From: Chloroflexota bacterium
Lineage (GTDB): Bacteria > Chloroflexota > Anaerolineae > Anaerolineales > Villigracilaceae
Assembly (NCBI GenBank): GCA_023484185.1
Contig: JAMDBC010000184.1
Span: forward strand, 1 to 7,741
DNA: 7,741 nt
Reading direction: 5' to 3'
Numbering within the stretch: the first letter of the stretch is position 1; each line of letters starts with the position of its first letter. The notes beneath the pieces are model-generated. The model was given only the letters and a program-made list of their open reading frames with translations. It did no database searches and was not told where the DNA came from. Positions 5,090-6,191 of the stretch are shown here, piece after piece. Made by a program: the position numbers and the translations under genes.

Positions 5090-6191
5090 TTTTCTCCGCC
5101 AATGCGTAACGACCATATCGGTAATAAGCCGCGCAGGCACCTTCTGAGGAAACCATGGTGGCTCCCAACGGGCTTTGAGGTGTACATTCCTTTCCAAAGG
5201 CGGGACACAGATTGGGTTTCCTCAAACCCTGGAGCACGAGCCCGCTGATACACAAACTGGATTCCTGTGTTGCAATTGTCTGTATTTCGGGAAAGCGCAA
5301 CTCAGCATCATATTCAGCAAATTCTGTCCGCAGTTTATATCCACTTTGAGGGATGACGCCAATGCCGCGCCACGGTCGGTCGCATGTCTCGAAGACTCGA
5401 TTGATGATCGCCTGCGCGGGTTTGTTACCATCTCGCAAAACCGAACGAGCGTACGCGTTTTCAACTTCGGCGCGTCCCTCTTCCAATTGTTTGAGCTATT
5501 TCAACACACCGTGCACAATGTCGACCGGCTCGAAGCCAGTCACGACAATCGGCACGTGATATTTCTCAGCCAGTGGTTCATATTCCCAGTAGCCCATCAC
5601 TGTGCAGACATGCCCTGCCGCCAGGAAACCATCGACTCGTACCTCAGGAGATTCCATCAAAGCGCTGATCGCTGCGGGAACGGTGACGTGCGAGACCAAC
5701 ATGGCAAAGTTGTGAATGCCTTGTACTTTGGCTTGGACCACTGCCATCGCATTCGCGGGTGCAGTTGTCTCGAAGCCGATGCCAAAGAAGATGACCGTTT
5801 TGTCAGGATTTTCACGCACCACCTTCAGCGCGTCGAGAGGCGAGTAAAGGATGCGGACATCGCCTCCTGCGGCGCGGACGCTGAACAGGTCCCGCTCTGA
5901 ACCGGGCACGCGTAACATGTCGCCATAAGATGTAAAGATCACATTCGGGGTAGAGGCGAGGGCAATCGCTTTGTCCACCTGTTCGAGCGGCGTCACACAA
6001 ACCGGGCAACCGGGCCCGTGCACGAGTTCGATCTCCGGCGGCAGGAGTTGATCCAATCCGCTTTTGATGATCGAATGAGTTTGCCCGCCGCACACTTCCA
6101 TCAACGTCCAACGGCGCGTGACGATGTGACGCAATTCATCGAGCAGTTTTTGTGTCAGCGCGCCATCGCGATATTCATCAATGAACTTCAT
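5073..6191 (-). CDS. hypD: Hydrogenase maturation protein HypD, interrupted by an in-frame TAG
   Basis: HypD with HypC is the scaffold on which the Fe(CN)2CO unit is built. The frame runs 372 codons from ATG 6191 (GGAGG 6 nt upstream) to TGA at 5073, the normal HypD length. Codon 232 (5498-5496) is TAG in the same frame, with no indel. Before it are EVCGGQTHS (32-40, Cys34), HGPGCPVC (58-65, Cys62 and Cys65) and [11 protein letters not shown] (136-146). After it, homology continues at once with [15 protein letters not shown], then [12 protein letters not shown] (274-285). The C-terminal cysteines 314, 329, 336 and 353 are in the region that binds the [4Fe-4S] cluster. The 231-aa product made by stopping at TAG would lack all of these and should be inactive. 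No Shine-Dalgarno is seen for a restart after the stop (the first candidate is TTG 5486). Nonsense mutation, base error or readthrough are the options; identity as hypD is certain. Confidence 0.93.

What the first reader, a model, noticed from the sequence alone, without database searches (positions are those of the whole stretch)
5496..5498. In-frame amber codon inside an otherwise intact hypD
Codon 232 of hypD is TAG, with both halves in the same frame and both strongly HypD-like: KxLKQLEEG runs straight through it. Everything after it, including the cysteines for the [4Fe-4S] cluster, would be lost. hypC, hypE, hypA and the protease all look intact, and hypE still overlaps the end of hypD, so the cluster shows no other decay. 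From my memory of the family the position is normally hydrophobic (Leu-like), so TTG to TAG by one transversion is the simplest origin. Options: a very recent nonsense mutation abolishing hydrogenase maturation, a base-calling error, a suppressor tRNA, or leaky termination (the next base is C). If real and expressed, this would be a case of stop-codon readthrough controlling hydrogenase assembly.
Basis: partly seen in the sequence, partly recalled or inferred. Interest (0 to 1): 0.75.

Follow-up and report, generated by a model that had tools for sequence, protein, structure and literature searches.

The report
Lone stop codon inside hydrogenase-maturation gene
One copy of a bacterial gene needed to build hydrogen-processing enzymes carries a stop signal in its middle; the surroundings suggest a sequence error or a very recent breaking mutation rather than a new way of reading the genetic code.

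Summary
Codon 232 of hypD (minus strand, 5498-5496) is TAG in a frame open on both sides; read through, it is a full-length HypD (372 aa, TIGR00075, 490 bits). The proposed origin does not hold. In the 120 closest listed proteins the residue is Cys in 117, never Leu. Ten of 21 near loci read TGC GTC where the window reads TAG CTC, so three adjacent bases differ and the next residue changes too, V233L. The part after the stop shows no decay: 2 window-specific replacements in residues 233-372, one of them V233L, against 6 in 1-231. The lesion is therefore very young, erroneous, or read through. I found no support for read-through: PylS over cut-off in 0 of 101 related genomes, no CUA tRNA seen in the one examined relative that also has an in-frame TAG in hypD, though its tRNA set looks incomplete, no unusual RNA fold. 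The window's own genome is not held and reads are not available, so error and real nonsense allele cannot be separated. I favour error slightly. Interest is low.

The parts
5496..5498 (-). in-frame TAG at codon 232 of hypD
   Evidence: column is Cys in 117 of 120 close listed relatives
5493..5498 (-). six-base stretch TAGCTC; 10 of 21 near loci read TGCGTC (three adjacent differences, C232stop and V233L), the other 11 differ at three or four bases
5499..6191 (-). hypD, first 231 codons (the product if TAG terminates)
   Evidence: TIGR00075, 314.7 bits
5073..5495 (-). hypD, remaining 140 codons and TGA stop, with C314, C329, C336, C353
   Evidence: TIGR00075 on 5076-5486, 155.7 bits; cysteines
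4031..5089 (-). hypE, 352 aa, open; its ATG overlaps the end of hypD
   Evidence: TIGR02124, 472.7 bits; ORF
6188..6448 (-). hypC, open, 86 aa
   Evidence: TIGR00074, 76 bits
6458..6802 (-). hypA, open, 114 aa
   Evidence: TIGR00100, 86.6 bits, just under its cut-off of 88.1
6816..7331 (-). hydrogenase maturation protease, open, 171 aa
   Evidence: TIGR00072, 107.6 bits; PF01750
7418..7741 (-). C-terminal end of a [NiFe] hydrogenase large subunit, cut by the window edge
   Evidence: PF00374, profile 426-508 of 508

Best explanation
The TAG belongs to a local, isolated discrepancy of three adjacent bases (TGC GTC in many relatives, TAG CTC here) and has no biological role. Most likely it is a base-level sequence or assembly error in this one contig, and the organism's real gene encodes an intact HypD. 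Shown: the cluster of differences, its uniqueness among the relatives examined, and the lack of decay after it. Inferred: that it is an error rather than a true base change; I have no reads and do not know the sequencing method or the source of the window.
For: Two adjacent residues, both otherwise conserved, are altered at one place. Of 180 hypD columns invariant in 19 related loci the window departs at three: 125, 232 and 233; three random positions in 372 would include neighbours in 1.6% of trials. Against the 14 closest proteins the window has a residue of its own at five positions: 81, 125, 232, 233, 289. After the stop the frame, the end of the protein and the conserved cysteines are kept, and the divergence of the second part relative to the first (0.82 to 1.87 against ten intact relatives) is like that among those relatives (0.94 to 2.59, median 1.46, 45 pairs), one value lying below it. 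The rest of the operon is open. The 231-aa and 140-aa pieces were not found as near-identical entries in the protein database: best hits 95% (full-length P0002) and 84%.
Against: No other frame break or in-frame stop was seen in the window's tested genes, so the sequence looks accurate elsewhere; a lone cluster of three wrong bases in 7.7 kb is not typical of error-rich data. The absence of near-identical truncated entries is weak evidence, because the database is clustered at 90% and both pieces could sit inside the cluster of the 93% relative P0002; one search also scored only the 8000 candidates sharing most words. hypE too departs from columns invariant in 19 loci, at 7 of 162, so single departures are nothing special; only the adjacency is.
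Confidence: 0.48

Rival explanations
1. A true, very recent nonsense allele in one strain, made by a clustered (multi-nucleotide) mutation. Translation stops after 231 residues in the middle of a helix, the [4Fe-4S] part is never made, and hydrogenase maturation fails unless another hypD copy exists in the cell.
For: The sequence as given; no decay yet after the stop; an in-frame TAG five codons further on in the only hypD match of a related genome, G402, suggests that hypD stop alleles do turn up in such data; some relatives carry two hypD genes (G002, G183, G394). Exchange of individual cluster cysteines abolished hydrogenase activity in E. coli (PMC9900092, passages).
Against: From the relatives' Cys codons it needs two changes in codon 232 and at least one in codon 233, in a gene otherwise kept. 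Internal stops are rare in the relatives looked at: 1 of 110 loci with a HypD match, and 30 of the 31 rows flagged end in an ordinary terminal stop; the listing was cut, and genomes there with two weaker matches, which could be broken genes, were not examined. The G402 contig also has a frameshift in a neighbouring transporter gene, so its TAG may be an error too.
Confidence: 0.4
2. UAG 232 is translated, by a suppressor or pyrrolysine tRNA or by leaky termination, so full-length HypD is made, possibly in limiting amounts that regulate hydrogenase assembly.
For: The second part is kept as if still under selection. Pyrrolysine genes are reported in a Dehalococcoides lineage of Chloroflexi (PMC5424206, passages). 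A related genome has another in-frame TAG nearby; the chance of one random stop falling within five codons of 232 is about 3%.
Against: PylS over cut-off in 0 of 101 related genomes (of 14 control genomes 1 passed) and not in G402. G402 has 41 tRNA matches; ARAGORN read 40 and none has a CUA anticodon, the last has a CCC-type loop by eye; tRNAs for Cys, Phe and Ile are not among those ARAGORN named, so the set is incomplete. A pattern search for CUA tRNAs in 41 relatives gave 10 hits, none a CUA tRNA by ARAGORN, and 20 hits for the pattern read backwards (no sensitivity control was run). RNA around and after the TAG folds no better than shuffles (z -0.02). 0 of 80 genome loci have a stop in this column (the 120 proteins are predicted proteins and could not show one). 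The introduction of PMC8629427 says that all bacterial reassignments known before that screen concern UGA (passages). The window's own tRNAs were not available.
Confidence: 0.06
3. hypD is split: translation stops at TAG and restarts at TTG 5486, giving two chains that assemble.
For: A TTG lies nine bases after the TAG and opens a 137-aa frame with the cluster cysteines.
Against: No Shine-Dalgarno-like stretch before that TTG by eye; the cut falls inside a helix of the model, residues 222-238, block pLDDT 96. The 120 listed C-terminal fragments start at many positions, 20 at 199 and 13 at 231, mostly internal Met or Val codons, which looks like gene calling at internal starts rather than a shared split.
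Confidence: 0.03

Closest known systems
HypD, [NiFe]-hydrogenase maturation factor (TIGR00075 / PF01924; solved chain 2z1d_A)
   Same: Whole frame scores 490 bits, keeps C34, C62/C65 and four C-terminal cysteines
   Different: One in-frame TAG at residue 232, Cys in close relatives and Leu in 2z1d
Strain-specific nonsense allele or recent pseudogene
   Same: Single in-frame stop, rest of the gene and operon open, no stop in this column in 80 related loci
   Different: Three clustered base differences instead of a single substitution
hypD of G402 (L126, from 4651)
   Same: Another in-frame TAG in hypD, at window codon 237, with hypA, hypC and hypE around it
   Different: Relatives have Glu there (GAA or GAG), so one change from GAG would do; codons 232-233 are TGC GTC; the contig has a frameshift in another gene
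Pyrrolysine-coding UAG
   Same: UAG inside an open frame
   Different: No PylS over cut-off in 101 relatives; UAG not kept in this column by 80 related loci

Membership tests
HypD (TIGR00075) | family score over the curated cut-off for the read-through frame | tested here: met
   490.2 bits against 192.8
HypD (TIGR00075) | four C-terminal cluster cysteines in the translated product | tested here: inconclusive
   present in the frame at 314, 329, 336, 353 but after the TAG; absent from the 231-aa product
recent pseudogene / nonsense allele | stop absent from close relatives | tested here: met
   0 of 80 genome loci have a stop in this column, nor any row; the 120 predicted proteins have a residue there but could not show a stop
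recent pseudogene / nonsense allele | stop present in independent reads | not testable with these tools
   no reads; own genome not held
recent pseudogene / nonsense allele | relaxed constraint after the stop | tested here: not met
   2 window-specific changes in 233-372 against 6 in 1-231, at columns where three references agree; a very young allele would look the same
pyrrolysine UAG decoding | PylS in the genome | tested here: inconclusive
   0 of 101 relatives over cut-off; own genome not held
UAG reassignment | TAG no longer used as terminator | tested here: inconclusive
   one gene of the window (2629-3303) ends in TAG, next in-frame stop 9 codons on; in relatives TAG ends some hypD genes (L173, L174, L185)
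programmed read-through | stop conserved at the same codon in relatives | tested here: not met
   0 of 80 loci; nearest case is codon 237 in one genome
programmed read-through | stimulatory RNA structure at or after the stop | tested here: not met
   z -0.02, 105 of 200 shuffles fold as well, on 100 nt from 5515 to 5416

The most novel reading that the evidence does not exclude
Some Anaerolineae-related Chloroflexota carry in-frame UAG codons in one helix of HypD (window codon 232; G402 codon 237) that are read through at low efficiency, so that hydrogenase maturation is limited by decoding of UAG.
Probability: 0.03. Interest if true: 0.75.

Novelty: already known. Interest (0 to 1): 0.13.

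Why it matters
If read-through were real it would be a UAG-decoded control of [NiFe]-hydrogenase assembly in an uncultured Chloroflexota lineage, a phylum where pyrrolysine genes are reported (PMC5424206, passages). On the present evidence it matters mainly as a caution: a lone stop in an environmental gene should be checked against the relatives' codons and the reads before recoding is proposed.

Tried and rejected
Single-step origin from Leu (TTG to TAG): rejected, column is Cys in close relatives. Templated origin of the new bases from elsewhere in the window: no copy of 8 to 12 bases spanning the change, only two 7-base matches, at 7266 and 2924 (window only). Recurrent split of hypD near 231: the 120 listed C-terminal fragments start at many positions. 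'Stops inside' flags: 31 printed rows; 30 fetched, each ends in a terminal stop at match codon 359-366 (strands of three corrected); the other is G402. Rows that one search did not print, and genomes with two weaker matches, were not examined. Copies in independent sources: protein searches with the two pieces gave no near-identical truncated entry, uninformative because of the 90% clustering. P0251, 236 aa, ends close to the same place but has no contig and may be an incomplete assembly. Literature: no paper of the held library has the three terms HypD, hydrogenase and 'premature stop'; the listings showed nothing that I judged to bear directly on this case; of PMC12130793 I saw passages and used none. 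A plasmid search gave 19 records of 60-80% identity. No tRNA and no Rfam match in the window.

Full report
What was claimed and whether it is there. It is there: the minus-strand frame 6191-5073 is open from ATG to TGA apart from TAG at codon 232. Both pieces and the whole are HypD by TIGR00075. The window holds, on the minus strand, the end of a [NiFe] hydrogenase large subunit, a maturation protease, hypA, hypC, hypD and hypE, and beyond them two transporter permeases, an alanine racemase and a C39-like peptidase. No other in-frame stop was seen in the genes tested (the hypE row there was one base out of frame, and hypE is open in the ORF listing). The window's own genome is not held, so neither its tRNAs nor its reads could be examined.

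What stands in that column elsewhere. Among the 120 listed nearest database proteins (8000 were scored) the residue is Cys in 117, Ala in 2 and Gly in 1; residue 233 is V in 100, I in 12, A in 7, T in 1 and never L. In 80 genome loci (the best 80 of 587 that the scan confirmed) the column is A 25, V 19, T 19, C 9, L 7, I 1; TTG stands there once and a stop never. The nearest loci have Cys followed by a Val codon, most often TGC GTC or TGC GTG. Of 21 near loci compared, 10 read TGC GTC; the window's TAG CTC differs from these at three adjacent bases, two of them in codon 232, and from the other 11 at three or four. Against TGC GTC it can also be written as one inserted A and one deleted G two bases apart. 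A single change from TTG is not supported.

How old it is. At columns where three intact relatives agree, the window has 6 replacements of its own in residues 1-231 and 2 in 233-372, one of which is V233L beside the stop; the 93% relative P0002 has 3 and 1. Against the 14 closest proteins the window has a residue of its own at 81, 125, 232, 233 and 289. The divergence of the second part relative to the first is ordinary. So the sequence after the stop has not drifted. This fits an error, a very young allele, or read-through; it does not separate them.

Is there recoding. I looked for PylS in 101 genomes related to G001, the genome of locus L001: 64 gave weak matches, none over the cut-off; of 14 control genomes 13 gave matches and 1 passed the cut-off. 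In ten genomes reached directly, partly the same ones, 8 gave weak matches and none passed. A pattern for CUA-anticodon tRNAs in 41 relatives gave 10 hits in 8 genomes, and 20 hits for the pattern read backwards; ARAGORN reads two of the ten loci as tRNA-Asp and finds no tRNA in the others. I ran no sensitivity control for that pattern. The 100 nt around and after the TAG fold no better than shuffles. The introduction of PMC8629427 says that all changes then known in bacteria reassign UGA; the same paper reports five further candidate clades, in a passage that I saw only in part. PMC5424206 reports pyrrolysine genes in Chloroflexi, including a Dehalococcoides lineage (passages). So the idea is not absurd for the phylum but has no support here.

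A second TAG in a relative. In a draw of 400 genomes from the order of G001, 270 had a HypD match. Thirty-one printed rows were flagged with a stop inside; the listing was cut. I fetched 30 of them, and in each the first stop is the ordinary terminal one at match codons 359-366. The remaining one, G402, has TAG at window codon 237, where relatives have Glu, GAA or GAG. Over the 110 loci with a HypD match held at that point, some of them duplicates of one genome, this was the only internal stop. The chance that one other random stop falls within five codons of 232 is about 3%, so the nearness is suggestive at most. G402 has 41 tRNA matches; ARAGORN read 40 of them and none has a CUA anticodon, and the last has a CCC-type loop by eye. 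tRNAs for Cys, Phe and Ile are not among those named, so this tRNA set is incomplete and does not exclude a suppressor. The G402 contig also has a frameshift in a neighbouring transporter-like gene, which points to sequence error or decay there. I therefore do not treat it as support for a shared mechanism.

What the stop would do. An AlphaFold2 model of the 93% relative P0002 from a 45-sequence alignment (mean pLDDT 78, pTM 0.80) puts residue 232 inside a helix, 222-238, in a block of mean pLDDT 96. Termination would leave a chain cut in that helix and lacking the four C-terminal cysteines. In E. coli, exchange of individual cluster cysteines abolished hydrogenase activity and destabilised the complex (PMC9900092, passages; that the window's C314, C329, C336, C353 correspond to E. 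coli C323, C336, C343, C360 is inferred from motif order). A restart at TTG 5486 has no Shine-Dalgarno-like sequence by eye and would begin inside the same helix.

Weighing. A three-base cluster at one place, not seen in the relatives examined, in an otherwise open operon, points either to an error or to a multi-nucleotide mutation caught very young. I put error at 0.48, a real nonsense allele at 0.40, read-through at 0.06 and split translation at 0.03. Nothing here needs a new mechanism, and the decisive test, the raw reads, is outside my reach.

Noticed in passing
L126 (G402:C327) 5359-5361: Another in-frame TAG in a hypD, window codon 237 (Glu in relatives), with hypA, hypC and hypE open around it.
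   Followed up: partly
L126 about 2493-2600, minus strand: Frameshift near the end of a transporter-like gene next to hypA: the protein appears to continue in another frame.
   Followed up: partly
L126 5887-6990 and 4262-4375: hypE of G402 carries two short in-frame insertions relative to the window, and the spacers around hypC and hypD look enlarged, possibly small dispersed repeats; by eye only.
   Followed up: no
protein P0005: A 420-aa HypD from a 3544-base contig repeats about 47 residues in tandem, perhaps an assembly artefact.
   Followed up: no
genomes G002, G183, G394: Two HypD matches over nearly the full length in one genome, so some of these organisms may have a spare hypD.
   Followed up: no
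genomes G162, G309, G350, G357, G380: Two HypD matches with weaker E-values, not printed as rows; these could be broken or split hypD genes.
   Followed up: no
window 2629-3303: Protein with a C39-like peptidase domain (PF13529, 28.7 bits), without an NCBIfam match, ending in TAG with another stop 9 codons on.
   Followed up: no
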